In this document: positions 6,400 to 63,906 of the stretch, one piece after another | Position numbering within the stretch: the stretch's first letter is position 1 | How the letters are laid out: each line of letters begins with the position of its first letter | Assembly: GCA_028571685.1 (NCBI GenBank) | Contig: CM053162.1 | Coordinates: 11,350,001 to 11,414,000, forward strand | Length of the DNA: 64,000 bases | DNA from: Heterohyrax brucei | Lineage: Eukaryota; Chordata; Mammalia; Hyracoidea; Procaviidae | Reading direction: 5' to 3' | The notes under the pieces: generated by a model | What the model saw: the letters and a program-made list of their open reading frames with translations, nothing else | Databases searched by the model: none | Told to the model about the DNA's origin: nothing | Made by a program: the position numbers and the translations under genes

Positions 6400-9030
6400 T
6401 TAATAACTGAAACATGGAATGTACAAAGTATGGGTATAGGAAAATTGAAAATTGTCAAAAACATAACAATGCATAAACATCTATTTCCTAGGCATTAGTG
6501 AGCTGAAATGGACTGATATTGCCTATTTTGAATCAGACAACGATATGGTCTACTATGTTGGGAATGACAACTTGGAAGAGGAATACTGTTACATTCATCA
6601 TCAAAAAAAACCTTGCAAGATTTGTCCTGAAGTACAAAGTTGTTAGTAATAGGATAATAGCCACACACCTGTGAAGAAGGCCAGTTAACACAACTATTAT
6701 ACAAATACATGCACCAAGCACTATGGCCAAAGATAAAGAAACTGAAGCTTTTTACCAGCTGCAGCTGTCCAAAATTGATTGAACATGAAATAAGAATCCA
6801 TTGATAACTACTGATGATTGGGTTTCAAAAGTTAGTAACAAACAAGGATCAGTAGTTGGAAAATATGACGTTGATGAAACAAATGATGCCAGAGATCACA
6901 TTACAGAGCTTTGCAAGACCAACAGCTTCTTTACTGCAAATACTTTTTTAAACCAACATAAAATGTCACTATACAATGGACTTCACCAGATGGAATGCAC
7001 TGGAATTAAATGAAATACATCTGTGGAAAGAAATGATGGGAAAGTTCAATATCATCAGTCAGAACAAGACCACGTTCTGCCTGTGCAACTGATCATCAAT
7101 TGTACATACTCAAATTCAAGTTGAAACTGAAGAAAATCAGAACAAGCCCATGAAAGCCGAAGTATGACTTTGAGTGTATCCCACCTGAGTTTAGAGACCA
7201 TCTCAAGGATAGATTTGATGCATTAAATGCTAATAACTGAAGACCAGATGAATTGTGGAATGACATCAAAAACACAATATATGAGGAAAGCAAGAGGACA
7301 TTAAAAATACAGGAAAGAAAGAAGAGACCAAACTGCATGTCAGGAGTGACTCTGAAACTTGCTCTTGAATGCCAAGTAGCAAAAGGAAAAGGTAGAAAAG
7401 ATGAAGTAAAAGAACTGAACAGAAGATTTCAAAGGGTGGTTTGAGAAGTCAAAGTATTTATAGCTACATGCACAAAGAGTTGGAGATTGAAAACCAAAAG
7501 GGAAGAACATGCTATACATTTCTCAATCTGAAAGAACTAAAGAAAAAAATTCAAGCATCAAATTGTAATAGTAAATGACTCTACAGACAAAACATGAAAC
7601 GACTCAGGAAGCAACACAAAAAGGTGGAAGGAATATACAGAGTCATTATGCCAAAAAGAATTGCTTGACATACAACCATTTCAAGAGGTAGTATATGATC
7701 AGGAACCAATGGTACTGAAGGAAGAAGTCGTAGCTGCACTGAGATCACTGGCAAAAAAGCAAAGCTTCAGAAGTTGAAGCTTTAGAAATTTCAAGAAACA
7801 GATACAGCACTGGAAGTGCTCACTCATCTATGCCAAGAAATTTGGAAGACAGCTACTTGGCCAACTGACTGGAAAAGATCCCTATTTATGCCCATTCCCC
7901 AAAAAGATGATCTAACCAAATGCTTGACAGCACTTGGCTTTGGCAACCAAATGCTAAAATTACTGAACAGTTGTCAATATCACACATAAGTAAAATTTTG
8001 CTAAAGATCATCAAAAGTGGCTGTAGCAGTATATGAACAGGGACTTGCCAGAAATTCAGAACAGATTCAGAAGAAGCTGTGGAACCAGGGGCATCACTGC
8101 TGATGTCAGATGGATTTTGGCTGAAAGGAGAGAATACCAGAAAGATGTTTAACTATGTTTTGTTGACTATGCAAAGGTACTTGACTATGTAGATCACAAC
8201 AAATCATGGATAGTACTGCATAGAGTCAGAATTGCAGAAAACCTAATTGTGCTCATGAGGATCAAGAAGTAGTCATTTGAACAGAACAAAGGGATCCTGC
8301 ATGGTTTAAAGTTAAGAAAAGTGTGTGTCAAGGTTGTATTCTTTCACTATCTACTAAGCGAAGCAAGCAACCTGGGCTATATGAGGAAGAACAGGGCATC
8401 CAGAAAGATTCATTAATAACCTGTATTGTGAAGATGATACAACCTTGCTTTCTGGAAGTGAAAAGGGTTTGAAATACTTACTGATGAAGATCAAAGAAAA
8501 TAGTCTTCAATATGGACTGCACCTCAACATCAAGAAAACAAAAATACTCACAACTTGACCAGTAAGCAACATTATGATAAATTAAGGAAAGATTGAGGTC
8601 ACCAAGGATTTCATTTTACTTGATTCCACAACCAATGTCCATGGAAGCAGCAGTCAAGAAATCAAAAAACATAACTGAACTGGGAAAACCTGCTGCAAAA
8701 GGCCTCTTTAAAGCATTGAAAAGTAAAGATATGAACTTAAAGACTAAGGTGCACCTGACCCAAGCCATGATATTTACAATCGTATTATGTGCATGTGAAA
8801 GCTGGACAACAAATAAGGAAGACTGAAGAAGAATTGATGCCTTTGAACTGCAGTGTTGGAGAAGAATAGTGAGTATAACATGGACTGCCAAAAGAACCAA
8901 CAGATCTGCCCGGGAAGAAGTAAAACCAGGGTGCTCCTCGGAAGCAAGGATAGTGAGACTGCTTCTCACATGCCTTGGACATGTTATCAAGAGGGATCAA
9001 TCCCTGGAGAGGGACATTATGCTTGGTAAA
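6400..9030 (+). pseudogene. RTE endonuclease/reverse transcriptase pseudogene
   Basis: RTE elements carry one ORF joining an AP-type endonuclease to a reverse transcriptase. The endonuclease start reads TETWNVQSMG-like near 6405, with an LGISELKW-like segment near 6495. The reverse transcriptase active-site box is YCEDD at 8424-8438, followed by TTLL. Downstream, an open 77-residue piece at 8593-8826 retains the ENITELGKPAAKG-like and CESWTT-like segments near the RTE C-terminus. Numerous stops and frameshifts, plus the micro-insertion at 7925, make it dead. The longest open pieces (6801-7013, 7253-7444, 8593-8826) belong to this one gene. Confidence 0.85.
7925..7944 (+). mobile_element. 20-bp micro-insertion of an RTE/SINE 3' tail with 11-bp TSD
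   Basis: The insert carries the CAGCACTTGGCTTTGGC tail core. It is flanked by perfect copies of AACCAAATGCT at 7914-7924 and 7945-7955. Removing insert plus one duplication restores continuity with the RTE coding sequence. It lies in the RTE reverse transcriptase region, so it post-dates that element. Confidence 0.8.
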
Positions 9031-9212
9031 GTGGAGGGTCAGTGAAAAAGAGGAAGACCTTCAAAAAGATGAATTGACACAGTGGCTGCAACAATAAGCT
9101 TCAGCATAAAAATGATAGTGGGTATGGCACAGGACTGGGTAGGGTTTTCTTCTGTTGTGCATAGGGTCATTTTGACTCAGAACCAACTCGATGGCACCTA
9201 ACAACAACATGA

Positions 9213-18887: not shown

Positions 18888-21554
18888 CCAACCAAAAATT
18901 TAAATATACACAATCAGTAAGAATGCATTCTACTAGGGAAAACACATATCATCAATAAACAAATGAGGAGAAAAAAATGTAGTAATGAAAGGATTAAGTC
19001 AAATCCAATGTTTATTTATCATTCCAAAAGTCATAGGGCCCTTAATAATTATGCTAAATCTGTTTTGCCTGTGCTCTACAGATTTAACAACAAACCCAGG
19101 ATGATAGCACATATCTTTACAGCATGGTTTACTAATTACTTGGAGCCCACTGTTGAGACCTACTGCTCAGGAAAAAAAAAAAAGACTCCTTTCAAAATAT
19201 TACTGATCTTCAGCAATGCATTTGATCATCCAAGAGCTCTGATAGAGGTGTACAAGGAGACTAATGTTGTTTTCATGCCACTTAGCACAATGTCCATTCC
19301 ACAGCCCTTGGGTCAAGGGATAATTTCAACTTTTGAGTCTTCTCATTTACAAAATACGTTTGAAAAGGCTGTAGCTACCATAAATAGTGATTCTTCTCAC
19401 TGATCTGGGCAAAGTAAATTAAAAGCCTTCTGGAAATAATTCACCATTCCAGATGCCATTCAAAACACTTGTGATTCATGTGAGGGTGTCAAATATTAAC
19501 ATTAACAAGAGTTTGGAAGAAGTTTATTCCAATCCTCACAGATAACTTTGAGGAGTTCAACATTTCGATGGAGGAAGTAACCACAGATGTGATGAAAAAA
19601 AAAAAAACTGCAAAAGATCTAGAATTAGAAGTGGAGATTGAAGATGTGACTAGATTGTTGCAATCTCATGATAAAACTTCAGTGGGGGGGGGTGGAGAGC
19701 CAAGATTGCAGATCAGTCACAAGTCTCTTCAATTCCCTCTGAGAACTAAGGCCTAGAAAACAACTGAACAGAGCAGAGTAGACATTTTGGGAACCCCAAG
19801 ATTAGGTGGAGAGTTGTGAGATAGGACTGGGCAACAGGAAAAAAAAACTACCTTCATCAGAGGTGAGACAGCTGTGCAAAGGGTCCCATTTCTGCTGGCA
19901 CAGCAGCTGAGAGGCTTACAGGTACGGACACCATCTTTGTTAACTGGGAAACTGGCACTGGGACTGAGCCTGGGACTACTGAGTCTGAGAGCCTGGCCGG
20001 GGCTGGCTGCCGTGCTGAGCTGTAGCACCTAAGTAGACAGTGTCTCTCACAGCAGAGAGGCTGTGCTTAGGACAGTGACATCTAGAGAACCCAGCATGGC
20101 TAGTGTCCAAAGGTACCAGTGCCCCTTCCCACTTTCTTCTTTGAGCTACACTATTGATTCTGCTGCAACAGGACAGAAGAGGTGGCACAGGCAGGACACC
20201 ATCTTAGCCAGCTGAGAGGTGGAGTCAACCACACCCAAGGGTCCAGCTGGGGCTGGCTGCCATACTGAGCAACAAGTACCTGACTGGACAGTGCCTCTCT
20301 CCACAGAAAAGCTGTTCTTAAGAAAAATAACACCTAGAGAACACAGTAGTGGCTTGTGGCCAAGTCTGGCAGTGCCCTTTCCCCTCACTTCTCTGAGCTA
20401 TGTCATAGTGATTTCTGATGGGGCTCTTTAGAGATTCCACAAGTAGGTCACCATTTTTGTCAGCTAGGAGACAGGACCTTCCACCACTGATGGTCCAGCT
20501 GCTACCAGCTGCCACCGGACAGCACCTCTCTCACCAAATAAACAGTTTTTAAGACAATTGCATCTAGAGAACACAGAAGGGGCTGATGGCCAAGTGTGGC
20601 AGAACTATTTCCCCATCCTTCACTGAGCCACGTCATAGCATCTGCTGACTCAGCCCCTGAGAGACTCCATAAGTGGGTGACCATCTTTGTCAGCCAGGAG
20701 GCCCAGCCTGCCACCCCTGAGAGCCCAAGTGCTACTGGCTACCACTGGACAGCACCTCAATCAGCAGAAAAGCAGTTTTTAAGACAAGTGCATCCAAAGA
20801 ACACAATGGTGGCTGGTGGCTGAGTGTCATGGCACTTTTCTCTCCTCTCTTCTCTCAGCTACACCATAGTGTCTGCTAGCATGACTCTAGAAAGTTGGCA
20901 CTAGTAGATCACCACCTTTATCAGCCAAGAGGTGGGGCCTACCAGCACTGAGGAACCAGCTGGGGCCAGCTGCCAAAAGAGAAGCTGTACTGAAAACAGC
21001 TGCACCTAAAAAATGCAGCACTGGCTGCAGCCACATCTAACATTATCCTTTACTCACTCCCTTGTTAGAGCTATGCCATAGCTTCTGCTGGTGCAACACT
21101 GGAGAAGCTGAACAGCTTTCTGATGATGTGAGGACGATAATCATTATCTAATTATTTAAAGAAGCAGAACACTGTGGCTCTAGAAAACTCTCAAAATAAA
21201 GAATCAAAAACCTTCCCAGATGATGGAAACCTCCTGAAATTTTGGAGGTAGAATACAAAAAAAAAAATTGTATAGTGCCCTTCTAGATCTTAGGATAAAG
21301 ATTAAACAAAGTGAAATCAAACAAAATGAAAAATTAAACAAGCTATATAAACTGCTAGAACAGCAACAATCTGAAATTCAGCAGATCAGCAACAAAATTG
21401 CAGTGTTAGAAAATTCAGTGCAAAGCCAAAAGATCAGGACTGAGGAAATGGAGTACAGAATTATCGAGACTGAAGATAAAGCAACTAACACCAGCATTTA
21501 TGGGGAGAAATAAGATAAAAGAATCAAGAAAAATGAAGAATCATTAAGAATATT

Positions 21555-22557
21555 GGGGGGGTGGAGTCAAGATGGTGGACTAAGCACACGTCTCCTTGTA
21601 TCCCTCTGGAAACCAAGACCTGAATTCACAATCAAACAGAGCCTTTTGATCACCTAATCAGCCTCAGGACACGGCACAGAGCTGTTCATTGGGATTTCAT
21701 ACCACTCAGCGAAAAACCTCCTCTCTTTCACTGACTCCTGCTCCCGGCTAGCCCCGGCTCTCATGGACGGAAGGTAAACGCACCAGTTTGACTTTTTTTT
21801 TTCCTCTGTCTCGGCTGGTGGGCGGAGCTGGGTTTTGCCTGGCAGCTGGACTCAGACACGCTGCTGGGGGATAGGCAGGCGAAATTCCCATATTCTGAGA
21901 GCCAGGCTCGGGACTCTGTTAATCTAGCCATCTTGAGCCTTTCATTTTGTAGCTGCCTCAGCGGGGTTTCACCGGAGCTCCGCAGGCAGTATGCAGGACG
22001 CCATGTTGGTACCGAGATTTTAGTGGGACCTTGTTCTTAGCCTGGGAGCCAGCGCCTGCAAATCGGACAGCACTTCTCCGACAGAAAAGTACTGATTTTG
22101 CACAGTGCTGCCTATGTTGGGGACCCTGCAACAGAAGCAGAGGAATCACTACCTCTCAGCACCTTTAGCCCCTCTGTGTGCTGCCTGTGTGGAGGATGCC
22201 ATCTTGGATATGGTGGCTGCAGCTGGACCTAATTCTTAGCTTGGGAGCCAGAGCCTGCCCAAAGGAGAGCGCTTTTCTATCACAAAAGCAGTACTCGACA
22301 CAGTGTTGGCTAAGGCTAGGCCCTGTCAGCAGAGGCCAACAGGGCAGTAGCATTGCTGTATTCTGAACTAGTTTGTTATCATCTGGGGTTGGATATAGTG
22401 GTGCTTACTTTGTCAGATGAGAAGAGGGACCTCTACACCTGAAAACCTAACTGACTTGTGAACTGGTCAGATACCTTTTGCTTTACACTTGAAGACAGCC
22501 TAGAGAAACATTTGCAATCTATCCTCACAGTACCTCTTCCAGCCTCTATATACTCAT
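21555..22557 (+). promoter_or_regulatory. LINE-1 5' UTR / internal promoter
   Basis: About 1 kb between the element start and the ORF1 ATG. It has an AAGATGG motif within the first 20 bases (YY1-like) and several partially repeated blocks (GGGAGCCAG...GCC at 22044 and 22242). Minus-strand open frames here are artefacts. Confidence 0.6.
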
Positions 22558-23504
22558 ATGGGACCCAAAAAGCAACAGACAATTGTGGCATACAAGCAAT
22601 CACTCATGGCTTCAGAAGGCTCCCAAACAAAGCAACCAAGGAGTTTTCCAGATGAAGAAACTTTTATGAAAGCATCAGGAAGTGAATACAAATTGATTAT
22701 ATACAGAGCCCTTCTAGACCTTATACAAAATGCAACAGAACAAAATGAAAAATTAAGCAAATTGTTCGATCTGATAGAACACCAGTACTCTGAAATCCAA
22801 CAGATCAAGAAGAAAATCAAAGACATCGAAACTTCCATGCAAACCCAAGAAAACAGAATGAAACAAATGGAAAAAAGAATTTCTGACTTGGAAAACAGAG
22901 CTACTGATGCCAGCGTCTATGAGCAGAAATCAGAAAAAAGAAACAAGAAAAATGAAGAAACATTAAGAAGCATGTGGGACTCTATTAAGAGGAACAACCT
23001 TTGATTAATTGGAGTCCCTGAACAGGGTGAGACATCTGAGAACACAGTATTGTTGCTGAGCTACTGAAAGAAATCTTCCCAGAAATCATGAAGGAAGAGA
23101 AAACAGAAATCTCAGATGCATATCATACGACACTCAATATAGATCTCAAAAGAAAGACTCCAAGGCATATTATAATCAAGCTTAACAAAATGAAACATAA
23201 GCAGCAACTCTTAAAGGCAGCAAGACTCAAGGCAAAGCTAACGTTCAGAGGGAAACCGTGTAGGCTCTCGTCAGATTTCTCAGCAGAAACCATGCTGGCA
23301 TGGAGACAGCGGCATGACACATTCAAAGTCTTGAAGAAGAAGAACTTCCAACCAAGAATTATATATCCTGCAAAACTGTCTTTCAAATACGAAAGTGAAA
23401 TTAAGACATTCCCAGATAAACAGAAACTCAGAGACTTTGTAAAAACCAAACCCAAACTGCAAGAAATATTGAAAGAAGTCCTTGGCTTTGGCTTAGAAGA
23501 ATGA
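22558..23504 (+). pseudogene. LINE-1 ORF1 (RNA-binding chaperone), two lesions
   Basis: Starts at ATG 22558 (MGPKKQQT). Coiled coil at about residues 55-120 (NEKLSKLFDLIEHQYSEIQQIKKK region, heptad pattern). The RRM start (LIGVPEQGE) comes just after an in-frame TGA at 23002-23004. A single frameshift between about 23040 and 23088 moves to the frame open at 23088-23504, which carries the C-terminal domain (KMKHKQQLLKAARLK, YPAKLSFKYE, FPDKQKLRDF). Restoring function would need only two changes, so this copy is fairly young. Confidence 0.9.
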
Positions 23505-23934
23505 AACCACTAACTTTATATTTTGGAATGACACACTACTCAATACTCTACTCATTTAGGGAAGGCTCCAAAGTAAATCACAGCTTTGATTTGGAAAGAA
23601 GCAATCCAGTGATCATCATGAAAACTATGGTGTCGTCATAATAAAAAGAGGGATGTACTACAGTCGTTATACTGCTTCCAGATGGAGAGGAAGATGACAA
23701 GACTGTTAGTAATTAAAATTGGGTTTATAAATAGTTTATTAAGGAGGTTTATAGTTTATTAGGGGCAGCTGTAAAGCACAACAAAGATGTATCATACCAT
23801 TTCAAGAAATCTAACACACGAGTCTCAATGACTATAAAACCAGCTCTGAAAAAGGTGAAAAATCAACTCACAAAAAAGAGTGTCCCAGAACAGCCTAATA
23901 AGAACAACAGAGAAAACATCAACATAAAAAAAAC

Positions 23935-26900
23935 ATATCACAAAGGCAACAGTGAACACATACCTATGAATAATTACATTGAATGTGAATGGACTGAATG
24001 CTCCAGTAAAGAGACACCGAGTGTCATCTTGGATCAAAAGACACGACCCATCCATATCTTGTCTACAAGAAACTCACTGGAGACCTAAAGACAGGAACAC
24101 ACTGAAAATTAAAGGATGGAAGAATATATATCAAGCTAACAATGAACAAAGAAGAGTAGGGGTGGCAATTCTAATCTCAGACAAAATCAATTTTAATGTA
24201 AAAACCACCATCGTGGACAAAGATGGACACTATTTATTGCTGAAAGGTTCAGTACACAAGCAAGACTTGACTATATTAAATATTTATGCACCTAATGTCA
24301 GAGCACCTAAATATGTCAAAGAAACACTGACTATGCTCAAAAGAGAGTTAGATGACTCCACAATAATAGTGGGAGACTTTAACCCTCCACTCTCATCGCT
24401 AGACAGATCATCAAGAAAAAAGCTCAGTAAAGATACAGAAGACCTCACTGACACAATTAACCAACTAAACCTCATTGATATATACAGAACTTTCCACCCA
24501 TCAGCAGACAACTAAACCTTCTCCACTGCACATGCAACATTCTCCAGAATTGACCACGTGATAGGCCATAATGCAATGCTCAACAAAATCCATACCATTG
24601 AATTACTGCAAAGCATCTTCTCAGATCATAAAGCCATAAAAGTTGAAACCAATAGCAGAAAAAACATAGATAGAAAGTGGAACTCTTGGAAACTGAACAA
24701 CATTTTGCTCAAGAAAACATGAGTTATAGAGGAAATCAAGGATGTATTAAAGAAATTCATGGATTCCAATGAGAACGAAAACACTTCCTACCAGAACATA
24801 TGGGATATAGCCAAAGCAGTGCTCAGAGGTCTGTTATCTCCATAAATGCACACATCTGGAAGGAAGAAAGAAACCAAATCAAGGAACGAACTCTACAGCT
24901 TGAACAAGTAGAAAGAGAACAACAGAGGTACCCCTCGGGCACCAGAAGAAATGAGATTATAAAGATTAGAGCAGAGCTAAATGAATTAGAGAATAGAAAA
25001 ACAATTGAAAAAATTGAAAAGACCAAAAGCTGGTTTTTTGAGAAGATCAACAAAATTGATAAACCACTGCCTAAACTTACTAAAGAAAAGCAGGAAAGGA
25101 TACAAATAACCCAAATTAGAAATGAGAGGGGAGTGGTAACCACAGATGCAACAGAAATCAAAAATATCATAACAGAATACTATGAAAGACTGTACTCTAA
25201 CAAATTTCAAAACCTAGGTGAAATGGACCAATTCCTTGACTCATACCACCTACCCAAATTATCACAACGTGAAGCAGAACAACTTAATAAACCCATCACA
25301 AAGGAAGAGATTGAAAAGGTCATCAAAACACTGCCAACCAAAAAAAGTCCGGGCCCAGATGGCTTCACGGCAGAATTCTACCAAGCATTTAGAGAAGAGT
25401 TATCCCCAATACTACTGAGACTATTTCACAGTATAGAAAGGGATGGAGTACTCCCAAACTCATTCTATGAAGCCAGTATAACCCTGATACCTAAGCCAGG
25501 GAAAGATCCAACAAAGACAGACAACTATAGACCAATATCACTCATGAACCTAGATGCAAAAATCTTCAACAAAATTCTGGCCAACAGAATACAACAACAT
25601 CTCAAGAAAATAATCCATCATGACCAAGTGGGATTCATACCAGGGATGCAAGGCTGGTTCAACATCAGGAAAACAATTAATGTGATTAACCACACAAATA
25701 ACACAAAAGACAAGCCAAGAGCCAAGTGCCGTCGAGTCAGATCCGAAAAGACAAGGATGACCTGATTTTGTCTATTGATGCCGAAAAGGCTTTTGATAAA
25801 GTCCAACACCCATTCATGCTAAAAACTCTTAGCAAAATGGGCATAGACAGCAAATTCCTCAACACAATAAGGGCCATTTACACAAAGCCAATTGCCCACA
25901 TCATCCTGAATGGAAAGAGACTGAAAGACTTTCCCTTGAGATCAGGAACTAGACAAGGATGCCCACTCTGACCTCTCCTATTCAACATTGTGCTAGAAGT
26001 TCTAGCCAGAGCAATTAGACAAGACGAAGAAATAAAGGGCATTTGCATCGGCAAAGAGGAAGTTAAAATCTCCCTGTTCACAGATGATATGATTGTACAT
26101 GCAGAGAACCCCAAGGAATCTATAAGTAAGCTACTCAAACTGATAGAAGAGTTCAGCAAAGTCTCAGGATACAAGATAAACATAAGTAAATCAGTAGGAT
26201 TCCTTTATACCAACAATGAGACTGTTAAGGAGGAAATTATCAAATCAATACCATTTACGATAGCCCCTAAGAAGATAAAGTACCTAGGAATTAATCTAAC
26301 CAGAGAAACAACAGATCTTTACAAAGAGAACTACAAGCCCTTTCTACAAGAAACTAAGAGAGACTTAGATAAATGGAAAAACCTACCCTGCTCATGCATA
26401 AGAAGACTTAACATTGTGAAAATGTCTGTTTTATCCAAAGCAATTTATTTATATAATGCAATCCCAATACAAGTTCCAGCATCATTTTTTAATGAGATGG
26501 AGAAACAAATCACCAATTTTGTTTGGAAAGGGAAGAAGCCCCGGATAAGTAAGGTACTACTAAAGAAGAAGAACACACTGGGAGGCCTCTCATTACCCGA
26601 TCTTAGAACATACTACACTGCCACAGTGGTCAAAACAGCCTGGTACTGGTACGAGAACAGACAGACTGATCAATGGAAAGAATTGAGACTCCAGAGATGA
26701 CACCATTTGCCTATGAACACTTGATATTCGACAAAGGCCCTAAGACGTTAAACTGGGGTAAAAACAGTCTCTTCAACAAATGGTCCTGGCAAAATTTGTT
26801 ATCCATCTGCAAGAAACTGAATCAGGATCCATATCTTACACTTTATACAGAAACCAACTCCAACTGGATAAAAGACCTAAATACGAAACCTAAAATGATA

Positions 26901-27798
26901 AAGCTCATCCAAGAAAAGTAGGAACAACAATGAAAGTTTTAATACACAGTGAGGACAGGCTAAAAAATCTGTCAAAGAAACCTCAATCAACAGAAGAGAA
27001 AATAGATAAATGGGAACTATTAAGAATCAAACACTTTTGCTCATCCAAAGACTTTATTCATACAATTAAAAGAACACCCACAGAATGGGAAAAAATATTT
27101 GGCAACTCTATGGCAGACCGACACTTGATCTCCATAATCTATAAGATACTACAAAATATCAATAAGAAGAAGATAAACCATACAATTAAGTGATGGGCAA
27201 AGGAGATGGACAGACACTTCACTAAAGAGGAGATCCAGGCAGCCGAAAAACACATGTGGACATGTTCACGATCTTTAGTTATTAAAGAAATTCAAATCAA
27301 GACAACAATGAGATACCATCTCACCCCAACAAGATTGGCCATGATCCAGAAAACACAAAACAACAAACGCTGGAGAGGCTGTGGAGAAAGTGGAACCCTC
27401 CTACACTGTTGGTGGGGTTGCAAAATGGTCCAGCCTCTTTGGAAGGCAATCTGGTGCTTCCTTAAAAAAATGGATATCGATATACCATTTGACCCAGTAA
27501 TTCCACTACTTGGAATATATCCTACAGAATCAAGGCCTTTCAACCAACGGACACATGCACCAGAATGTTTATCGCAGCACAGTCCACGATAGCAAAAAGA
27601 TGGAATCAACCCAGATGCCCAACAACAGAAGAATGGATAGGTAAACTATGGTACATATACTCAATGGAGTTCTGCACAATGATAAAGAATAACGATGATT
27701 CCGGGAAACATCTCCTAACCTGGTTTCAACTGGAAGACATTATGTTGAGTCAAAGTAGTCAGCGACAAAAGGACAAATACTGTATGAGACCTCTATGA
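23935..27798 (+). pseudogene. LINE-1 ORF2 (endonuclease-reverse transcriptase), multiply broken
   Basis: Domains in order: endonuclease from about 23970 (TLNVNGLNAP, CLQETHWR, ILNIYAPN, VGDFNPPL); reverse transcriptase from about 25250 ([45 protein letters not shown]); catalytic box FTDD at 26077-26088 (usual L1 FADD); C-terminal cysteine cluster CGESGTLLHCWWGC near 27380-27420. Lesions seen: TGA near 23967; TAA 24513; TGA 24720; frameshift about 24828; 31-bp micro-insertion 25715-25745 (frameshift); TGA 25969; frameshift about 26690; TAG 26919; TGA 27191; frameshift about 27560. Not functional. Confidence 0.92.
25715..25745 (-). mobile_element. 31-bp micro-insertion of an RTE/SINE 3' tail with 10-bp TSD
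   Basis: Read on the minus strand it starts inside the palindrome (CGGATCTGACTC), passes GACGGCACTTGGCT and ends CTTGG. Perfect duplication AAAAGACAAG at 25705-25714 and 25746-25755. It shifts the frame of the L1 reverse transcriptase between the IRKTINVI and [15 protein letters not shown] segments. Confidence 0.92.
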
Positions 27799-29723
27799 TA
27801 AGATCTCGAAAACAGACTTGTGTATAGAAGAAAAGGCTCTTTGACAGCTGCATGGGAGGGGAGGGAGGGAGGGTAAGGAGCGGAGGGTTTAGTTTAGATA
27901 GTTACTAGAAATCTAGTTGGGAGAAAGCGGTGATAGCCGCGTTAGAAACAAGAACAACATGAAGTGGACTTCAGCATAACTTGAGTACTCCTTCCATCTT
28001 AACTCAGTACTGCAAGGATAGAGTAGCTGGGGCAGGGGGCGGGGGACCATGCTCTTAGGCGAATTCCAAGCCAATTGGCACAACTAGCGTTTTGCTAAGA
28101 GAGCTCTCTGCACCCCACATTGGTGAGTGGTGTCTGGGGTCTTAAAAGCTGCCAAGCTGCCATCCGAGGACACAGCAAATGTGTCCAACTCAGCAGGAAC
28201 GGATGCTCACCAAGGACCAAAATGACATGGGGTAAAGACAACCAAGAAGACAGAGAGACCCACAAGAGTGGGTACCTACATCAACTTGGGACCGGAAGAA
28301 CCAGATGGTGACCGGCCACCACCAGCGATAGCCACGATGGAGCTCACAGAGAGGAGTCTCACTGGCAACACAAGAATAAAAAGAGGTGCATCATAAGATC
28401 TCCACTAAAAGACCTCAACTGATGGTCCAGTGGTTTTGGGGTTCCTCTGAGAGCATGGCCCCCTGCCCTGATGCTGCCCTTTCCCATAAATTATAACATA
28501 GGTCCACTCTTTGGACAGGAATGGATTGGACTTGGCAATGCAGAGTGACCATATATTGGAAGCACTTTATGGTTCTATACATCTATAGGATATCATCTTG
28601 CTGACCTCTGGCTGGAGGAAGGGGAGTGGATGGAGAGGAGGGGAAAGGAGGCTGTTGGGAGGATGAGACATGTATGGAGCAGAGATGAATAGTGTGCAGT
28701 CACCGGACAGGGAGAGCAGTGGAAGCTGCATATAGGTGGGCATGCAAATTTATATGTGAATGTACATTTTCACTCAGTTATGTTAAATAAAAAAAAAAAA
28801 AGAATATTTGTGACTCAATCAAGGGGAATAATTTGCACGTAATTGGAGTTCCCAAACAGAGAGGGATAGCAGAAATTACAAAGAGAATTGTTGAAGAGTT
28901 GCTCACAGAAAACTTCCCAGACATCGTGAAAGAAGAGAAGATAGCTATTTAAGATGTTGATCAAACTCCATAAAAAGTAGACAGCAAACGAAAGACACCA
29001 AGACATGTCATAGTCAAGCTTAACAAAATGAAACATAAGGAGAAATCCTTAAAAGTAGCTAGGCTTAAACAAAAACTAAGTTACAAAGGAAATCCTTGTA
29101 GAATGTCCTCTGACTTCTCAGTTGAAACCTTGTCACCAAGAAGACAATGGGATGACACGTACAAAGCCTTAAAGGAAAAAAACTTTCGGCCAAGAATTAC
29201 ATATATTGCAAAATTGTCTTTCAAATATGATGGTGAAATTGCAACATTCTCAGGCAAACAGAAGCTTAGAGACTTTGCAAAAATCAAATCAAAATTACAA
29301 GAAATACTAAAGAAAGTTATGCAACTAGAAAATCAATAACAGCAGACGTATACCCAAGGATGCCATGCAGAACATAGAACAGTACCTCCAGTTCTAATTA
29401 GCTAGGGAAGTAACAGAGTTCAATCAAAGCAAAAATATTAAAATTAAGGAAACAGAGAGCTCAACATGTAAACTATGACAACATTACACTATAAAGAGGT
29501 ATACTTTGCAATGTTAATAGCCCTTTCATATGGAGAGGAAGTTAAGGAGATTTAAAGAAGTTAAAGACTGGTTTAAACTTAGGACACTGGAAGGGAAGGG
29601 GTAGCTGCAAAGTAAACTAACAATACTGCACAAAACAAGAAACACAGTACAGAAGTTGCAACAGACACTAAACAAACACTGAAAAGATGAAAAGAAAACC
29701 CATAAACAAAAATTACCCAGAAC

Positions 29724-29975
29724 CATATCATGTGTGCACTTTATAGTTCAGTGCATCTATAGGATGTCATCCTATTGACTTCTTACTAGAGGAAAGCAGA
29801 GAGAGTAGAAAGGAGGGGACAGGAGATTATTAAGAGGCTATGATATGCATAGAATGGAAAGGAGGGGTGTGCTGTCACCAGGCAAGGATACCATAAGGAG
29901 TTGCAGATAGGCAAGCATGGAAATTTAAACTTGATTGTACACTTTCACTCAATCACAGTTAAAAAGAAAAAAAGG
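29724..29975 (+). mobile_element. 5'-truncated LINE-1 3' end (252 bp)
   Basis: Only the last part of a young-type L1 3' UTR (GTGCACTTTATAGTTC... to TTTCACTCAATCACAGTTAA plus A-rich tail) inserted in the ORF1-ORF2 spacer of the old L1. Duplication CCCAGAAC at 29716-29723 and 29976-29983. Confidence 0.9.
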
Positions 29976-30039
29976 CCCAGAACAGAATATTAAGTGGAAT
30001 GAAATAAAGGTCAACGACACAAAAATTAAGACACCAAAA

Positions 30040-33000
30040 TAATAACACTAAACGCTTATTTATCAATAATTACACTACATGTAAATGTACTGAATGCCCC
30101 TAAAAGAGAAGAGAGTAGCAGGCTGGATCAGAAAACATAATCCAGCTATACGCTGTTAAAGGAAACACACCTTGGATTCAAAGATAGGAACAAATTGAAA
30201 AATCAAAGGATGGAAAACTACATACCAAGCCAACAACATACAGAGAAGAATGGAATCGCAATATTAATCTTAGATAAAATAGAGTTTAAAGTAAAATCGA
30301 CCATTTTGGACAAGGATGGTCACTATTTATTACTTAAAGATTTGACATATATGGAAGATATAACAATATTAAATAATTACACACCCAATATCAGAGCATC
30401 TAAATACATTGAACAAATGCTGAGAACACTGAAAAATGAGATAGATCGCTCCACAATAGTAGTAAATGACTTCAACACTCCACTTTCAGTAAGGGACAGA
30501 TCACCCAGAATAAAAGCTCAGTAAATATGCAGAAGATCTAATTGTGACAATTGACCAACTTAATCTCATTGACATATATGGAACTTTTTACTCAACAACA
30601 GGCAAGTATGCCTTCTCTTCCAATGCATATGGAACATTCTCCATAATACACTGTGTACTAGCCCATAAAGCAAGTCCCAACAAAATCCAAACCATTGAAT
30701 TATTGCAAAGCATCTTCTCAGATCATAAAACCATAAAAGTTGAAATCAATAGCAGAAAACACATGGACAGAAATTCCAATTCATGGAAATTAAACAACAC
30801 CTTACTCAAAAATTCATGAGTTATAGAAGAAATCAGGGGTGCAATAAAGAAATTAATGGAATCAAATGACAATGAAAACACATTGTACCACACCCTATGG
30901 GATACAGCAAAAACAGTACTCAAGGGTCAATTTGTCTCTATTAACACACATATCTGGAATGAAAAAAAGGCTCAAACCAAAGAATTAACCCTACAGCATG
31001 AACAAATAGAAAGAGAACAACAAAAGAACCCCTTGGGCACCAGAAGCAAATAGATTAAAAAAAAAAAAAATAGAGCAGAACTAAACAAATTAGAGGATAG
31101 ACAAACAAATGAAAGAATTAACAAAACCAAAAGGTGTTTTTCTGAAAAGATCAACAAAATTGATAAACCATTGGCTAAACTCACAAAAAAGTAAGAAATG
31201 AGATGGGAGATGCCACAACAGACCCAACCAAAATTAAAAGTATCATAAGAAAATGCTATGAGAAATTGTACACTAATCGATTTGAAAACCTGAGGAAATG
31301 GACACATTTCTAGACTCACATCACCTACCAATTGTATCACAAAGAGAAATAAAGCAACTTAATAAACCTATCACAAAAAATGAGATTGAAAAAGTAAAAA
31401 AAAACTACCAACTAAAAGAAGTCCTGGCCCAGATGGCTTCACCAGAGAATTCTACCACACTTTCAGAGAGGAGTTAATGCCAATAATACTGAACCTATTC
31501 CACAACACAGAAAAGGATGGTACATTCCCAAATTCATTCTATGAAGCCAGCATAACTCTGATACAAAATCTGGGTAAAGACTCCGCAATAAAAGAAAATT
31601 ATAGACCAATATCACTCATGAACCTAGATGCAAAAGTCTTCAACAAAATCCTGGCCAACAGAATTCAGCAGCAGATCAAAAAAATAATTCACTGTGACCA
31701 AGATTCATACAACAGGTACAGGGTTGGCTCAGCATCAGAAAAACAACTAATGCGATCATCCACATAAAAATCACAAAGGATAAGAATTACTTGATTCTAT
31801 TAATTGATATGGAAAAGACATTTGAAGAAGTCTAACACCCATTAGTGTTAAAAACTCTCAGCAAAATAGGAATACAAGGGAAATTCCTCATTGCAATAAT
31901 GGGCATCTATGCAAAGCCAACTGCCGACATCATCCTGAATGGAGAGAGACTGAAAGAATTTCCACTGAGAACAGGAATTAGACAGAGATGTCCACTATCA
32001 CCACTTCTATTCAATGTTGTGGTAGAGGTTCTAGCCAGAACAATCGGACAAGACAAAGAAATAAAGAACATCCACACTGATAAAGAAGAAGTGAAACTAT
32101 CCATGTATGTAGATGATACGATTGTATACACAGAGAACCCTAAAGAATCTGTAAATAAACTACTAGGACTAATAGAAGAGTTCAGCCAAGTACCAGGGTA
32201 TAAGATAGACATAAATAAATCAGTAGGATTCTTTTACATCAACAAGGAGATCATCAAAGAGGAAATCACCAAATCAATACCATTTAGTATAGCCCCCGAG
32301 AAGATAAAATACCTAGAAATAAATCTAATCAGAGCTGTTAGAGACCTACACAGAGAACATTGAGAGAGCCTCCCGCAAGAAACCAAAAAGACTTACGTAA
32401 GTGGAGAAACCTACCTTGCTTATACTTAGGAAGACTTAACATTGTGAAAATGGCTATTACACCTGAAGTGATCTAGATATAATACAATTGCAACACAAAT
32501 TCCATTGTCATTTTTTAATATAATGGAGAAACAAATCACCAACTTTGTCTGGAAAGTGAGGAAACCCTGGGTAAGCAAGACAATACTGAAGAAGAGGAAC
32601 ACGGTGGGAGGCCTCACACTACCCAACCTTAGAGCTTGTTACACTGCCATGGTAGTCAAAACAGCCTGGTACTGCTATAAAATAGATATATAGACCAATG
32701 AAACAGAACTGAGAATCCAAAAATATCATCAACCTCCTACGAACAGTTAATATTCAACAAAGGCCCAAAGGTTGTGAACTGAAGTAAAAACAATCTCTTT
32801 AGCAAAGGCTATTGGTAAAATTGGATATCTATCTGCAAAAAAAATGAAACAAGACCCGTATCTCACATCTTGTAAAAAAACTAACTCAAAATGGATCAGA
32901 GACCTAAATATCAAACCTAAGACCATAAAAATTATGGAAGAAAAAAATAGGGACAATGAAAGTTCTACTATATGGCTAAACAGACTACAAAATCTTACCA

Positions 33001-33740
33001 ATAATGTGTGAACAACAGAAGAGAAAATAGATAAATGGGAACTGCTAAATATCAAACACACTCATTCAAAGACTTTATCAAGAAAATTAAAAGACTTCTT
33101 ACAGGATGGGAAAAAACATTTGGCAACTACGTATCAGATCAGAGTCTAATTTCCATAATCTACAAGGCACTGCAAAATATCAACAAGAAAAACACAAATA
33201 ACCCATTAAACAATGGGCAAAGGACATGTGTAGACACTTCACCAAAGAAGACAGATGAGGAAATGCTCACGATCATTAGCTGTTAAAGAAATCCAGATCC
33301 AAACTACAGTGTGATACCACCTTACCCCACTGAAGCTGGCAATAATCTAAAAAACACAACACAACAAATGCTGGAGAGACTGCAGAGAGATTGGAACTCT
33401 CCTGCACTGCTGATGGAAATACAAGATGGTACATGCTCTTTGGAAAGTAATTTGGTGCTTTCTTAAAAAGCTAGCAACACAAATACCATGTGATTCAGCA
33501 ATCCCACTGCTTGGAATATATTCTACAGAAATAAGGTCTATCACATGAACAGATTCATGCACACAAATGTTTATTGCAGCACAGTCCACAATAGCAAAAA
33601 GATGGAATCAACCTGTGTGCCCATCTGGAACACTACGCAATGATAAAGAACATGATGATTTTAAGAAGCATCTCATAACCTGGTATCAGCTAGAAGATAT
33701 TATGCTGAGTGAAATCAGTGAACTGCAAAAGGACAAGTAG
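30040..33740 (+). pseudogene. ORF2 of the old LINE-1
   Basis: Endonuclease (open 30195-30524, ILDKIEFKVKSTILDKDGHYLLLKD; VVNDFNTPLS), linker, reverse transcriptase (open 31477-31767 and 31845-32363; [16 protein letters not shown]) with catalytic box YVDD at 32106-32117, then the C-terminal domain to about 33740. Stops and frameshifts throughout. YVDD is a valid reverse transcriptase box, so that site is not what inactivates it. Confidence 0.88.
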
Positions 33741-34046
33741 TCTATGACACCACTATTATAAAGACTTATACACAGAAGAAAAGCCTGCCGGCTACAACGG
33801 TGGGGAGGGAGGGAGTGAGCTGGTCGAAGATTAGATAGTTGATAGGAATTTGGTTCTATGAAGGGCTTGACTGCACTCAGTAAAAGGCAGGTCAGCGTAA
33901 TTGCACTACACCATAAACTAAAAGGTTTTTTAAATTCAACCAAACATTTCAAAGGATAGAGTTGCAGGGACAGGAATCTGGGGAAGGTGTTTTCCAGGGA
34001 CATTAAAGTCAGTTGGCACAGTTAGCCTTTTGCTAAGAGAGTCTTC

Positions 34047-34079
34047 ATGAGTCGGATCTGACTCGACGGCACTTGGCTA
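34047..34079 (+). mobile_element. 33-bp micro-insertion of an RTE/SINE 3' tail with 9-bp TSD
   Basis: Contains the whole palindrome (GAGTCGGATCTGACTC, one change) plus GACGGCACTTGGCTA. Perfect duplication AGAGTCTTC at 34038-34046 and 34080-34088. It sits in the 3' UTR of the old L1. Confidence 0.92.
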
Positions 34080-40345: not shown

Positions 40346-41617
40346 AGAAACTAGGTTTCTCTGTGCTCCATTTCCTGAGGGCTACTGTTGTCGGCATCAG
40401 CAATCTATCAAGCTAGACTCCTAAAAATATAATGGCTCTTGCTGTACCAGTTGAAACAGAATGTGTCTGGCAAGGCAGGGGATAAGGCTGGGCTGGGCTG
40501 TCCTCGTCAGATTGTCCTGAAGTTTGGAGGGCAGATCAGGGAACATCATCTTAAAAGGGTTATAATAAATGAGAACGGCTTCAGGGGACAGTGCTATGAA
40601 TCCCGCTCAGTGTTTTTGAAAGAATGAATTAATGTAGAAAGACAGTGGCTGAGGCAGTGAGTGTTAAGAATACTTATCAACTAAGAGAAAATCCAAAGAA
40701 TTAGAACTGTTCAACATGAAAGAGATTTAGATACCAAATACCGCATGGAATGAGATACGTGAGTTGTTGTTTTGACCTCAGAGAGTGAGCCAAGCCAAGT
40801 GCCGTCGAGACGGACAGAAGTTATAGGAAGTCAGATTCCAACTCTGAGGAAAATCTCCTAAGAAGTTAAAAGTGTCTACTAATGGAATGAACTAATCTGT
40901 AGGTTTGCCTTTTGCTGAAGGCAGTTAAGTAGAGGTAGAGGCTGAATTATTTTTGAAGAGGGAAATTTGTTTACTAAATATTCATTAATACTTTTTATGG
41001 GCAAGCAGTGGGACAAATTCTGGGGATTAAAAACTGAGTAAATTATGGTTCTTAGTCTAATAGGAAAAAGCTTGTCAACAATCAAAGTGATTCAAATGTC
41101 ACTGGTCCACCAGCCTATGAGATCAAAGTAAGATTGCAACTTTTTGTATTAGAATTCTTCCAGGACAAACCACCACCTGCCTAAATTCCAGAAATTAGCC
41201 TTCTTTAAAGTATTTCTCTCCAGTTATTTCTCAATCCTGGCCCCAGGGCAAAACCGTCTTACCAAACCAACTAGAGAAATGGCTGCAAAGCAAACTTCGT
41301 GAATACAACCACAGCTGGAGATGAGAAGCCTGCTTGGGAGCTTGGTTCAGGATTGGAGCCTGGTGAGTGAAGATTGTATTTGGAGACTTTAAAGGTGGAA
41401 AAAAATGCCTCAGAATTCGGTATTGTACAGACACAGTTTTCACCTAGAAGTACGATAGTACCTGAATCCCAATCCTACATGTCCTGGTTTCCCTAGAGAA
41501 TTGCACCAAGAATGTCAGCATAGCTGGAAAAAAGTTTAGAATTGAGAAGAGCATCTGCATATGTTAAACTGTATGTAGCTGACCATTTCCAAGTAAAGTA
41601 CAGTAACTGATCTCTCT
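40346..41617. other. Mostly unrecognised DNA with one micro-insertion
   Basis: No credible gene. Contains the tail fragment at 40789-40809. Open frames of 60-70 aa are without domains. Confidence 0.5.
40789..40809 (-). mobile_element. 21-bp RTE/SINE tail fragment, no TSD seen
   Basis: On the minus strand reads CTCGACGGCACTTGGCTTGG and one more C. It begins at the 3' edge of the palindrome. Flanks show no repeat longer than 3 bp. Confidence 0.65.
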
Positions 41618-46652: not shown

Positions 46653-46676
46653 ACTCGACAGCACTTGGCTGGCTGG
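46653..46676 (+). mobile_element. 24-bp RTE/SINE tail fragment, no TSD seen
   Basis: ACTCGACAGCACTTGGCTGG then CTGG: starts at the last bases of the palindrome and ends in a GGCT repeat. No duplication recognised in the flanks. Confidence 0.65.
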
Positions 46677-56089: not shown

Positions 56090-57100
56090 TCCCCTTGGGA
56101 TGCTATGCACTGATACCAGCACCTTCAAAGCAATTTCAGAACTCTTTTTCTGGAAAGGCCATCAGAGCTGTCATCATATAACCCTTGATGTCCTGGATGT
56201 CATCAAAATGTCTTTCTTTCAACATTTCCTTTATCTTTGAGTAGAGAAAGATCAGGTGAGCAGGGAGGGTGTCCCCAAACAGTTATTTGTTTACTGGCTA
56301 AAAATTCCCTCATCAACAGTGCCACATCAGCTGGTGTATTGTTGTGATGCAAGAGCCATGAATTGCTGGCAAAAAGTTAGGGTCGTTTTCATTTAACTTT
56401 TTCGTGCAGCTTCTTCAGCACTTCCAAATAGATAGTAAATTTGGCTGTTTGTCCAGTTGGTACAAATTCATAATGAACAATCCCTCTGATACCAACTCGA
56501 CGGCACTTGGCTGGCCTTGGCTCTGATACCAAAAACATTAGTAATAACATTTTGATTCTTGATTTGAATTGAGTGAACTTTTTGGTCATGGAGAATTGGC
56601 TGACTCCATTGTGCACTTTGATGCTTTGTTTCAGGGTCATATTGGTACAATAACGTTTCATCGCCAGTGATAACACTGCCCCAAATATCTTCTTGCCTCT
56701 CTAAGAGTTCTTGCCAAACTTCAACTCTCCTTTGCTTTTTTTCATTGGTGAGCTCCCTTGGAACAATTTTTGCACACACCTTTCTCTTGTCAAGATTTTC
56801 AGTTAAGATTTTCCTGTTTCTTTATCAACGTTTATTTGGTCTGCTATGCCTCTCACAGTCAGCCGATGATTTTGACACACAATTTGATGACTTTTTGCGA
56901 TGTTTTAGTCAGTTGTCTTTGTTACTGGCTGCCCTGACCTCTCTTTATAAGTAATGTATTGTCTCTCCTCAGAAAAAATTTTTATCCATGTGTATAGTAC
57001 TGTTTTCTTCTAGCCTTGTCCCCATAAACATGGACTAACATATCCCTGATTTCACTCCACTCTTTCCAAGTTTAACAAAAAATTTAATGTTTGTTCATTA
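56090..57100 (-). pseudogene. mariner transposase pseudogene
   Basis: DD34D-type transposase catalysing cut-and-paste at TA. The longest open pieces are 56468-56779 and 56389-56676 on the minus strand. A VPRELTNEKKQRRVE-like segment is followed by VITGDETLLYQYDPETK, which holds the first catalytic aspartate. Further residues are spread over other frames. The micro-insertion at 56496 interrupts the gene downstream of this motif; other stops and frameshifts also inactivate it. Confidence 0.88.
56496..56520 (+). mobile_element. 25-bp micro-insertion of an RTE/SINE 3' tail with 12-bp TSD
   Basis: CTCGACGGCACTTGGCTGG followed by CCTTGG. Perfect duplication CTCTGATACCAA at 56484-56495 and 56521-56532. 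Removing it rejoins the mariner sequence. Confidence 0.95.
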
Positions 57101-58437: not shown

Positions 58438-58460
58438 ATCCGACTCGACGGCACTTGGCT
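58438..58460 (+). mobile_element. 23-bp RTE/SINE tail fragment, no secure TSD
   Basis: ATCCGACTCGACGGCACTTG then GCT: begins at the centre of the palindrome. A possible 4-bp repeat GTAT flanks it, too short to rely on. Confidence 0.7.
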
Positions 58461-58496
58461 GGTATAGAACTTACTGTGTACTCAATACATTTCTAG

Positions 58497-58670: not shown

Positions 58671-58685
58671 GCCAAGCCAAGTGCC
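58671..58685 (-). mobile_element. 15-bp RTE/SINE tail fragment (tentative)
   Basis: Reads GGCACTTGGCTTGGC on the minus strand. Next to GGCTTGTC, so the site forms an imperfect palindrome. No duplication seen. Shortest and least certain member. Confidence 0.4.
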
Positions 58686-60037: not shown

Positions 60038-60102
60038 GAGGACTACATATGATAAGTCAAAACTTGGGGAAGGCAGACAGGATGAAGGGACCTCTCTAAG
60101 TC

Positions 60103-60284: not shown

Positions 60285-61924
60285 CAGTAACTGGAAGCCT
60301 CTAGTATTTTTACCATGGTGCTTTGAAGTGGTGAACTTTGTCCTGTACTTCCTGGGCCTGGCATTCCTCATGCCAGCTTTCCTAAAGGGGCTGAGGCAGC
60401 CTGACCAGGCCGGTTAGTCTGGGTGGAGCCCTCAGACTACCTTAATCCCATATAGCTGTTACCTGGAACAGTCAGAAACAAATGGGCGTGTAGCTAGACA
60501 GAAAGTCTGACTTGGTGTTTACATTCTCTTTCCCCAGCAGAGGGCTGAGGACAGACCAGACCTTTAGCTTACTCTGGGCAAGGCTCAGAGAAGGAGTCTC
60601 TTGGCCACTGTGTGCCTAGAGAGGGTGAATTCAGAAAGGCAGCAAGCAGCAGCAGGTGGGAAATAAGCAGGGAGTCACCAGTCTGGGACGACTGCCTAAA
60701 CACTATTGTCTGCCACCAGCTCTCTGTGCCAACCCAGGCCTGCTGGACTGACCATGTTTAAAGGGCCAGCTGGCAGACTACCAGAGGCAAGCTGAGAACA
60801 GTTCTGCAGAACAGATCATGGCAAGGACCTTTTCACAGAGCAGGAAGGTGGAGAACAGGAGTGTGTGGAGTCAGGAACTGGTCAAGAGACAGAGAACAAG
60901 TCAGACGATGGAGGAAGGTCACAGATACCGGTAGCGAGCATGGCTGTGTGACAGGAGTTTGTTCTCACCAACCACTGGCTGCCTCGTGTCGTTTCAGATT
61001 GGTCAGCTCAAACATACCTGAACTGACCAGACATGACACAGCCTCTCTCCAGATTTCTGGGGTAGACACCAACTGGGATGCCAACACACCCAGTCCTCCC
61101 TCGTACCCTGAAATTCACATGCTGCCTGCAGCCACTCAGCTCAGGGTGCCCTCTGATCCCTCCAGCTTTTACTCACCCTTCCGCCTGCTATTCTCTCTCT
61201 CCCAGAGAACTGGCACCTCTCTATTAGTGTCTTCACTGCTCTGAAACCCAGACTGTAAAGAAAGATTCAACCACTTTAAACCTCACACTTAACCTTCGTT
61301 TTTACCCAGAGTGAAATAATCCAGCTCTTACTTCCTGGGGGAAGATTTATGGCCTCCTTCTTTCTGCCTCCCTTTAGACACTGAGGATTAGGAAGCTACC
61401 ACCTGTACTAAAGGCCCATTGACCAGTGCTACGGTCACCTACAAAAAGCTCTGTAGGAAATGCACCCCGAGATCAGAATCAGGGTGACTGGTTCCTGGAA
61501 GCTGATCTCACTCCTCCCCACCCAGGAAATCTGTGAGATACTTCAATTCTGGAGTGGTCAGTTGTAGGTCATTTCTAGCAAAACTGTTTCTTGACTATAG
61601 TGGAGTTCCGCTCGGAGCAAAAAGGGGAGCAGTGGTCTCAGAGCATCTGACTGGCCCCAGGTGAGAGGTGTTGTTCCTGACTCCTTCTCTAATAATCTCT
61701 AAGGGAGAGTCAAGGCAACCTATTTTTCTTAAGAGAGATAAAGAAAGAGGTAGAATAAGGTAGTGACAGCGACCGTACCACATGATTTTAACTTGTCCAC
61801 TTTTTTTCAAGCTGCAGTCTTCACTTGAGAGTCAGTTCTAGATGAACCAGGAATGGAAACTAAATAGGACAGATGAAAGTAGGTGCAGGAAGGAAGAGAG
61901 AATCTTTGTCAAAGCTGTTATGGC
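60285..61924. other. 1.6 kb without recognised gene or repeat
   Basis: GC content is higher than in the surrounding DNA. The largest open frame (60861-61244, 127 aa) shows no domain or signal that I recognise. A non-coding regulatory role cannot be judged from one sequence. Confidence 0.5.
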
Positions 61925-63545: not shown

Positions 63546-63854
63546 GCAATGGGTTTTATTTTCTTTTACTTGTGAAACAGATTCCTTCTACTCGATGAAA
63601 CTCAGGTTCCTTTATGTTTATGTACTAAGAAATGAGTATTACTTGATTTGTTGTCCTAATCTTGGAGAATTTTCTTTGCATTTCTTCACATGAAGCTAGT
63701 ACAGCATAAGAAAAACAGCCTGAATATGTCTGTGCTTTTTTTAAATCAAGGGCCCACCTGCCTAACCTAATATACTGCATGTAAGTAATTACTAAATATT
63801 TCTAACATGATGACTTTCAACTTCTCCCTGAGCCCCAGTAATTTGGTTCCTGGC
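63546..63854. other. No recognised feature
   Basis: AT-rich DNA without ORF or recognised repeat. Confidence 0.5.
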
Positions 63855-63906
63855 CCCTAGGGTTGCCATGAGTCGGATCCGACTCGATGGCACTTGGCTT
63901 TGGCTT
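63855..63906 (+). mobile_element. About 50-bp SINE/RTE 3' end with CACTTGGCT tail
   Basis: CCCTAGGGTTGCCATGAG leads into the perfect 16-bp palindrome GAGTCGGATCCGACTC (63870-63885), then GATGGCACTTGGCTTTGGCT. The longest copy of the tail type found in the micro-insertions, extending only about 13 bp upstream of the palindrome. No convincing duplication. Confidence 0.75.

What the first reader, a model, noticed from the sequence alone, without database searches (positions are those of the whole stretch)
7914..63906. A family of ultra-short (15-33 bp) retroposed tail fragments
Eight tiny sequences share CTCGACGGCACTTGGCT plus one or two TTGGC/GGCT repeats, in both orientations and in unrelated host sequences (RTE, L1 ORF2, L1 3' UTR, mariner, single-copy DNA). 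Four have perfect 9-12 bp target duplications. RTE-type retrotransposons end in short tandem repeats rather than poly(A), and this is what the fragments end in. About one per 8 kb here would imply a very large genomic population invisible to repeat maskers, because copies are too short to score. Inference: RTE machinery abortively reverse-transcribes the 3' end of one SINE/RTE lineage at high frequency.
Basis: partly seen in the sequence, partly recalled or inferred. Interest (0 to 1): 0.88.

Follow-up and report, generated by a model that had tools for sequence, protein, structure and literature searches.

The report
Swarm of retroposed SINE tail stubs
This mammal genome holds tens of thousands of tiny DNA inserts, mostly 20 to 55 bases long, that are copies of only the last few dozen bases of one short retroposon, which suggests that its copying machinery usually quits almost as soon as it starts.

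Summary
Nine core hits lie in the window (0.05 expected); eight belong to this family. Four have perfect 9-12 bp target duplications, and two sit in L1 copies whose paralogues in the window are empty sites. The window's own genome (3.49 Gb) holds 32,593 exact cores and 78,599 allowing CpG decay; reversed controls 0. I read 100 listed loci; 94 are independent. Inserts are under 60 bp in 79/94 (median 38). Clear duplications occur in 27/94 against 11/557 swapped controls. The donor is a SINE of AfroSINE type; about 1-2% of copies are full length (estimate). Target sites carry the upstream T-run described for RTE/Bov-B LINEs. Sampled L1 3' ends show no such stubs (0/20 against 87/94). So these are probably RTE-type target-primed insertions that ended within tens of nucleotides. 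Not settled: whether the enzyme stops at RNA structure or copies pre-cut RNA ends; orthologous empty sites in relatives.

The parts
7923..7944 (+). 22-bp SINE tail stub (core 7923-7939 + TTGGC); 9-bp duplication AACCAAATG at 7914-7922 and 7945-7953
25715..25745 (-). 31-bp tail stub inside an L1 ORF; 10-bp duplication CTTGTCTTTT (minus strand) at 25746-25755 and 25705-25714; paralogous empty sites near 31.75 kb and 4.8 kb
34047..34079 (+). 33-bp tail stub in the 3' part of an L1 copy; 9-bp duplication AGAGTCTTC at 34038-34046 and 34080-34088; paralogous empty site near 28.1 kb
40789..40809 (-). tail stub CTCGACGGCACTTGGCTTGGC, no clear duplication
46654..46676 (+). tail stub with one CpG change (CTCGACAGC...), tail GGCTGG; only a doubtful 7-bp duplication with 1 mismatch
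56496..56520 (+). 25-bp tail stub; perfect 12-bp duplication CTCTGATACCAA at 56484-56495 and 56521-56532
58438..58461 (+). tail stub starting ATCCGACTCGACGG, no clear duplication
58671..58685 (-). shortest stub, GGCACTTGGCTTGGC, lacking CTCGAC; no clear duplication next to it
63849..63904 (+). 56-bp truncated SINE tail (CCTGGCCCCTAGGGTTGCCATGAGTCGGATCCGACTCGATGGCACTTGGCTTTGGC), longest in the window; only a weak 6-bp repeat with 1 mismatch

Best explanation
The fragments are separate retroposition events of one AfroSINE-type SINE whose RNA ends in ...GCCATGAGTCGGATCCGACTCGACGGCACTTGGC plus TTGGC-like repeats. An RTE/Bov-B type endonuclease nicks DNA about 10-14 nt downstream of a T-run, and reverse transcription starts on the repeat tail of the SINE RNA. 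In most surviving insertions (79/94 sampled inserts under 60 bp) synthesis ends within a few tens of nucleotides, inside or just beyond the last hairpin. The short cDNA is then joined to the upper target strand, often at 1-4 nt of matching sequence, leaving a duplication of commonly 9-12 bp. Shown: insertion, donor, excess of duplications, T-run, extreme shortness, genome-wide numbers. Inferred: that the enzyme is a resident RTE LINE, and that shortness comes from early stopping at RNA structure and not from short template RNA.
For: Genome counts 32,593 exact and 78,599 CpG-tolerant, reversed controls 0 (the tool calls repeat counts lower bounds). Donor interior block TGAATACTCTGGGGGTC: only 4,398, 5.6% of the CpG-tolerant tails, in line with 7/94 sampled copies keeping more than 50 nt upstream. 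Inserts under 60 bp 79/94, median 38; among the 27 with well-defined duplications 25/27, median 35. Duplication score >=8 in 27/94 against 11/557 swapped, >=10 in 15/94 against 1/557. T at -14..-10 of short, duplicated inserts 69/125 against a background of 32.5%, p=1.5e-7, 0 of 5,000 permutations; TTT at -15..-9 in 15/25. The same T-run is described for RTE/Bov-B LINEs (PMC13295347, Results section). The core continues directly as (T)nGGC in 81/94. Two empty paralogous sites. L1 3' ends: 0/20 truncated within 60 nt against 87/94, p=9e-17. Ends per nt at risk are highest (0.12) at -14..-18, just 3' of a predicted 14-bp stem, then 0.03-0.04 (bins chosen after seeing the data). Junction microhomology >=1 nt in 17/29 against 24% in a null.
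Against: The -14..-18 peak lies in the short unpaired linker between two predicted stems, where RNA cleavage would give the same ends. A shorter 50-nt piece of the donor folds differently, and hairpin z-scores are modest. I saw no RTE LINE with this tail in the 94 loci, so the partner is inferred. The TA step of the signature is weak (TA 7, TT 7 of 29). In 67/94 loci no strong duplication was found; in 12 of these none was assigned, and their insert lengths are rough.
Confidence: 0.6

Rival explanations
1. The same RTE-type target-primed insertion, but the template is already short: the SINE RNA is cut or degraded and only its protected 3' hairpin-plus-tail piece is bound and copied to its end.
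For: Truncation points concentrate in and just beyond the 3' hairpin, with a peak in the unpaired linker. For L1-made tailless retropseudogenes truncation points coincide with single-stranded regions of the RNA (PMC5322556, abstract). Duplications and T-run fit equally well.
Against: Junction microhomology at the 5' end (17/29; biased test) fits an internal stop better than run-off. Truncation points are spread over many positions and not at one cut site.
Confidence: 0.33
2. Double-strand-break repair patches: SINE cDNA ends or short RNA-templated pieces captured at breaks without endonuclease nicking.
For: Many loci show no clear duplication (67/94), and microhomology is common.
Against: Strong excess of duplications and a positioned T-run; the core runs straight into the SINE's repeat tail in 81/94, as expected of priming at the RNA 3' end. 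The loci were selected on the core, so only the tail beyond it is informative.
Confidence: 0.04
3. The stubs are leftovers of longer SINE copies eroded by deletion, or a genomic word spread by host-repeat copying.
For: A few stubs are shared by near-identical flanks (L010/L013, L052/L053, L073/L074/L075; L098/L099 and L100/L101 by eye) and so spread with their hosts.
Against: Duplications lie directly against the stub ends. Empty paralogues show a clean gain at two sites. Only 6 of 100 loci are host duplicates.
Confidence: 0.02

Closest known systems
AfroSINE family and its partner RTE1 LINEs in afrotherians
   Same: Full-length copies (L114, L116) look like AfroSINE (head and body recalled from memory; similar older SINEs recur in the window). 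The AfroSINE/RTE1 partnership is tabulated in PMC3747384 (passages). PMC13295347 says an elephant RTE-clade LINE shows a similar target pattern, citing Gilbert et al. 2008 (passage).
   Different: Here nearly all sampled young copies are tail-only stubs; I saw no description of that in the texts searched. Gilbert et al. 2008 itself was not available.
5'-truncated LINE copies made by target-primed reverse transcription
   Same: Intact 3' end, missing 5' part, target duplications, microhomology.
   Different: Truncated LINE copies are given as 100-1,000 bp in PMC3747384 (passage). Here the median insert is 38 bp from a donor of roughly 160 nt, and L1 in the same genome shows 0/20 stubs.
Tailless retropseudogenes (PMC5322556)
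   Same: Very numerous short retroposed RNA pieces with duplications; breaks in single-stranded regions (abstract).
   Different: Those lack the 3' end and are ascribed to L1; these keep the 3' end and tail and bear an RTE-like signature.
[quoted passage not shown]
   Same: T-run about one helical turn before the duplication; first duplicated base often T or A (Results section).
   Different: TA step weaker here. The Bov-B copies there are up to about 3.5 kb and many are under 1 kb; that paper does not describe stubs in the parts I read.

Membership tests
RTE/Bov-B type target-primed insertion | Target-site duplications of about 8-15 bp | tested here: met
   27/94 with score >=8 against 11/557 swapped; commonest length 11
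RTE/Bov-B type target-primed insertion | T-run about 10 nt upstream of the duplication | tested here: met
   69/125 T at -14..-10, p=1.5e-7, 0 of 5,000 permutations
RTE/Bov-B type target-primed insertion | TA (or TT for T-tailed SINEs) at the cleavage point | tested here: inconclusive
   TA 7 and TT 7 of 29
RTE/Bov-B type target-primed insertion | Short tandem-repeat 3' end instead of poly(A) | tested here: met
   Core continues as (T)nGGC in 81/94; GGC in an equal stretch 120 nt away in 7/94
RTE/Bov-B type target-primed insertion | A resident RTE LINE sharing the same 3' end | not tested
   No RTE body noticed upstream of the core in 94 loci; a dedicated RTE search was not run
AfroSINE | 3' body and tail of the SINE | tested here: met
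   Longer copies share one SINE body; 12/14 interior-block loci carry the tail, one of them diverged (L104) (by eye). That this body is AfroSINE rests on recall
AfroSINE | tRNA-derived head with pol III promoter | tested here: not met
   The stubs lack it; 2/14 interior-block loci reach the head by eye. The tRNA origin itself was not tested
Tailless retropseudogene | Missing 3' end | tested here: not met
   Stubs consist of the 3' end
L1-mobilised retrocopy | poly(A) tail | tested here: not met
   Tails are (T)nGGC in 81/94; the L1 TT|AAAA target was not scored

The most novel reading that the evidence does not exclude
An RTE-mobilised SINE in this mammal has run for tens of millions of years in a mode in which about 98-99 of 100 fixed insertions are incomplete and most are tail-only stubs of about 20-55 bp. 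That leaves on the order of 10^5 insertion scars too short for ordinary repeat annotation, and makes the stub ends a natural single-nucleotide record of where an RTE reverse transcriptase stops (or where SINE RNA is cut) in the germ line.
Probability: 0.6. Interest if true: 0.8.

Novelty: new variant of a known kind. Interest (0 to 1): 0.68.

Why it matters
Retroposon catalogues can drop inserts shorter than about 50 bp (the human/chimpanzee study PMC2912911 took 50-10,000 bp; passage). If most products of an RTE-mobilised SINE are shorter than that, insertion rates, mutational load and truncation models of such elements are underestimated. The stubs also offer tens of thousands of in vivo end points for testing whether truncation follows RNA structure, enzyme processivity or RNA decay, and many small insertion markers for the phylogeny of the group.

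Tried and rejected
Chance similarity: rejected by shuffles and reversed-motif controls. Old SINE tail at 16246: excluded, different tail. 23480 and 45296 look like native L1 and SINE sequence, not stubs (by eye). DSB-repair patches and erosion of long copies: see rivals. A sharp single truncation site: not seen, ends are spread. A first duplicate filter wrongly merged long SINE copies because it compared donor sequence; it was replaced by a flank comparison, and the figures are not used. The direct-repeat scan missed the 34047-34079 duplication by a register shift; searches show it.

L1 control, less clear part: in sequence already fetched plus the window, 17 near-matches (up to 2 mismatches) to the L1 3' word were found. 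Seven keep 65-67 nt of the L1 consensus. Ten keep 0-16; by eye five of these share another L1-like 3' end, one is an L1 end interrupted by a stub insertion (L028), four look unrelated. I therefore rest the control on the 20 exact genome hits. The reversed L1 word has 3 chance hits.

In 250 kb of fetched sequence, none of 6 near-matches to three tail motifs outside the exact cores lacked a CTCGAC-like upstream part; in the window 1 of 9 fragments does, so still shorter stubs seem a minority, on small numbers. That a description is not in print rests only on the open-licence PMC searches (listings, with some passages read).

Rows dropped: 100 exact-core loci read (86, 14); L013, L053, L074, L075 dropped by flank identity, L099 and L101 by eye from near-identical printed flanks, leaving 94. 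All 94 lie in the first 16.5 Mb of contig C1, not a random genome sample, and were selected on an exact core, so shorter or older stubs are not represented.

Full report
OBSERVATION. The 17-base core occurs 9 times in the window with up to 3 mismatches, against 0.05 expected. Eight are fragments with TTGGC-like tails in both orientations; the ninth, at 16246, is the end of an ordinary older SINE. A further stub, GGCACTTGGCTTGGC, lies at 58671-58685. The four mismatches in the eight cores are CpG transitions (read). Perfect target duplications flank four stubs: 9 bp at 7923, 10 bp at 25720, 9 bp at 34062, 12 bp at 56496; the other five show none that is clear.

EMPTY SITES. The window contains L1 copies that serve as pre-insertion paralogues. 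L1 copies near 31.75 kb and 4.8 kb lack the 41-base gain (stub plus one duplication) at 25705-25745. The L1 copy at 28.1 kb lacks the gain at 34043-34083. In the alignment of the two long L1 copies (71% identical over 5,670 aligned bases) these two gains belong to the tail family; the other eight listed length differences of 12-200 bases do not. The insertions are therefore real and younger than the L1 copies.

GENOME-WIDE. The window lies in a held 3.488-Gb genome at C23:11350001-11414000. The exact core occurs 32,593 times, the reversed motif 0 times. Allowing transitions at its two CpGs gives 78,599, reversed motif 0; the core followed by TGGC occurs 15,083 times. The tool warns that counts of repeats can be lower bounds. 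In 250 kb of fetched sequence I read 8 of 10 listed inexact cores (1-3 mismatches) as TTGGC-type, one of them a paralogue of a targeted copy, so the true number is probably somewhat above 10^5 (rough estimate). About 41% of CpG-tolerant cores keep both CpGs (32,593/78,599), which points to activity over some tens of millions of years up to fairly recent times (inference from recalled CpG rates).

DONOR. I read the 100 exact-core places that one search listed (fetches; loci printed); six are host duplicates, leaving 94. Longer copies share one SINE body ending ...GCGCTCCTTGAATACTCTGGGGGTCAGTTCTACCCTGGCCCCTAGGGTCGCCATGAGTCGGATCCGACTCGACGGCACTTGGCTTGGC. Of fourteen loci picked by the interior block, two show the SINE head by eye (L114, L116) and 12 carry the tail, one of them diverged. 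Head and body look like AfroSINE, which I know from memory; AfroSINE and its RTE1 partner are tabulated in PMC3747384 (passages). In 81/94 loci the core continues directly as (T)nGGC; GGC in an equal stretch 120 nt away occurs in 7/94.

LENGTH. Of 94 copies, 73 keep at most 20 nt upstream of the core, 14 keep 21-50, 7 more than 50, of which 2 (L024, L083) at least 100. Inserts are under 60 bp in 79/94, median 38; for the 27 with well-defined duplications 25/27, median 35. Lengths of the others are rough. An independent genome-wide check agrees: the interior block 44-60 nt upstream occurs 4,398 times, 5.6% of the CpG-tolerant tails. With 2/14 of those reaching the head by eye, and 2/94 keeping at least 100 nt, roughly 1-2% of copies are near complete (estimate). 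As a control from the same genome, an L1 3'-end word occurs 8,486 times, its reverse 3 times; of its first 20 listed places all 20 keep at least 63 of the 67 nt scored upstream, so 0/20 are stubs against 87/94 for the SINE tail, p=9e-17. A looser L1 scan (17 near-matches) was mixed and is told under Tried and rejected.

MECHANISM EVIDENCE. Duplication scores of 8 or more occur in 27/94 loci against 11/557 when right flanks are swapped, and 10 or more in 15/94 against 1/557; the commonest length is 11 bp. Among the other 67 loci, 12 had no duplication assigned and 55 only a weak one. In 25 short inserts with strong duplications, T is enriched 10-14 bases before the duplication (69/125 against 32.5%, p=1.5e-7, 0 of 5,000 permutations), and TTT lies at -15..-9 in 15/25. 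PMC13295347 (Results section) describes this T-run about one helical turn upstream for Bov-B LINEs and their SINEs, followed by TA; here TA and TT are each 7 of 29, so that part is only partly met. The same paper says that Gilbert et al. 2008 found a similar pattern for an elephant RTE LINE (passage); that paper was not available. At the 5' junction 17/29 show at least 1 nt of microhomology against 24% in a null; this test is biased upward and includes one case (25720) whose boundaries I entered wrongly.

WHERE SYNTHESIS ENDS. An 89-nt stretch of the donor RNA end is predicted to fold into a last hairpin (GAGTCG/CGACTC) and, just upstream, a 14-bp stem; a 50-nt stretch folds differently. Ends per nucleotide at risk are 0.058 within the hairpin stretch, 0.12 at -14..-18 directly before the stem, and 0.03-0.04 beyond it, in bins chosen after seeing the data. 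This fits a reverse transcriptase halting at structure. It also fits cleavage of the RNA in the unpaired linker, so the two cannot be separated here.

VERDICT. What is new relative to the texts I could search is the degree: a SINE whose sampled young insertions are nearly all stubs. Truncation by target-primed reverse transcription is a known kind, so I rate it a new variant. Not done: orthologous sites in relatives, the RTE partner, a random genome-wide sample, the count of still shorter stubs, and a test of what repeat maskers miss.

Noticed in passing
L103: A copy that lacks its 3' end and starts with an inverted piece of tail (CCAAGCCAGCC), like twin priming or snap-back.
   Followed up: no
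L106: A 3'-truncated copy without tail (ends ...GGGGGTCAGTTCTA), apparently flanked by the duplication AGCTGTACA; tailless copies of the same SINE exist.
   Followed up: no
L073, L074, L075; L010/L013; L052/L053: Stubs shared by near-identical flanks (97-100%), so some stubs spread with duplicated host sequence.
   Followed up: partly
window 22501-34400: Two L1 copies in tandem about 6 kb apart, 71% identical, useful as paralogous empty sites.
   Followed up: yes
window 18921-19400: ORF matching DDE_1 (PF03184, E=1.1e-22), a DNA-transposon remnant.
   Followed up: no
window 60762-61241: Weak, below-cutoff TEX13 match (E=0.0035).
   Followed up: no
window 1-64000: Stub density about 5.5 times the genome average (8 against 1.44 expected); reason unknown, perhaps only because this window was picked for it.
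   Followed up: no
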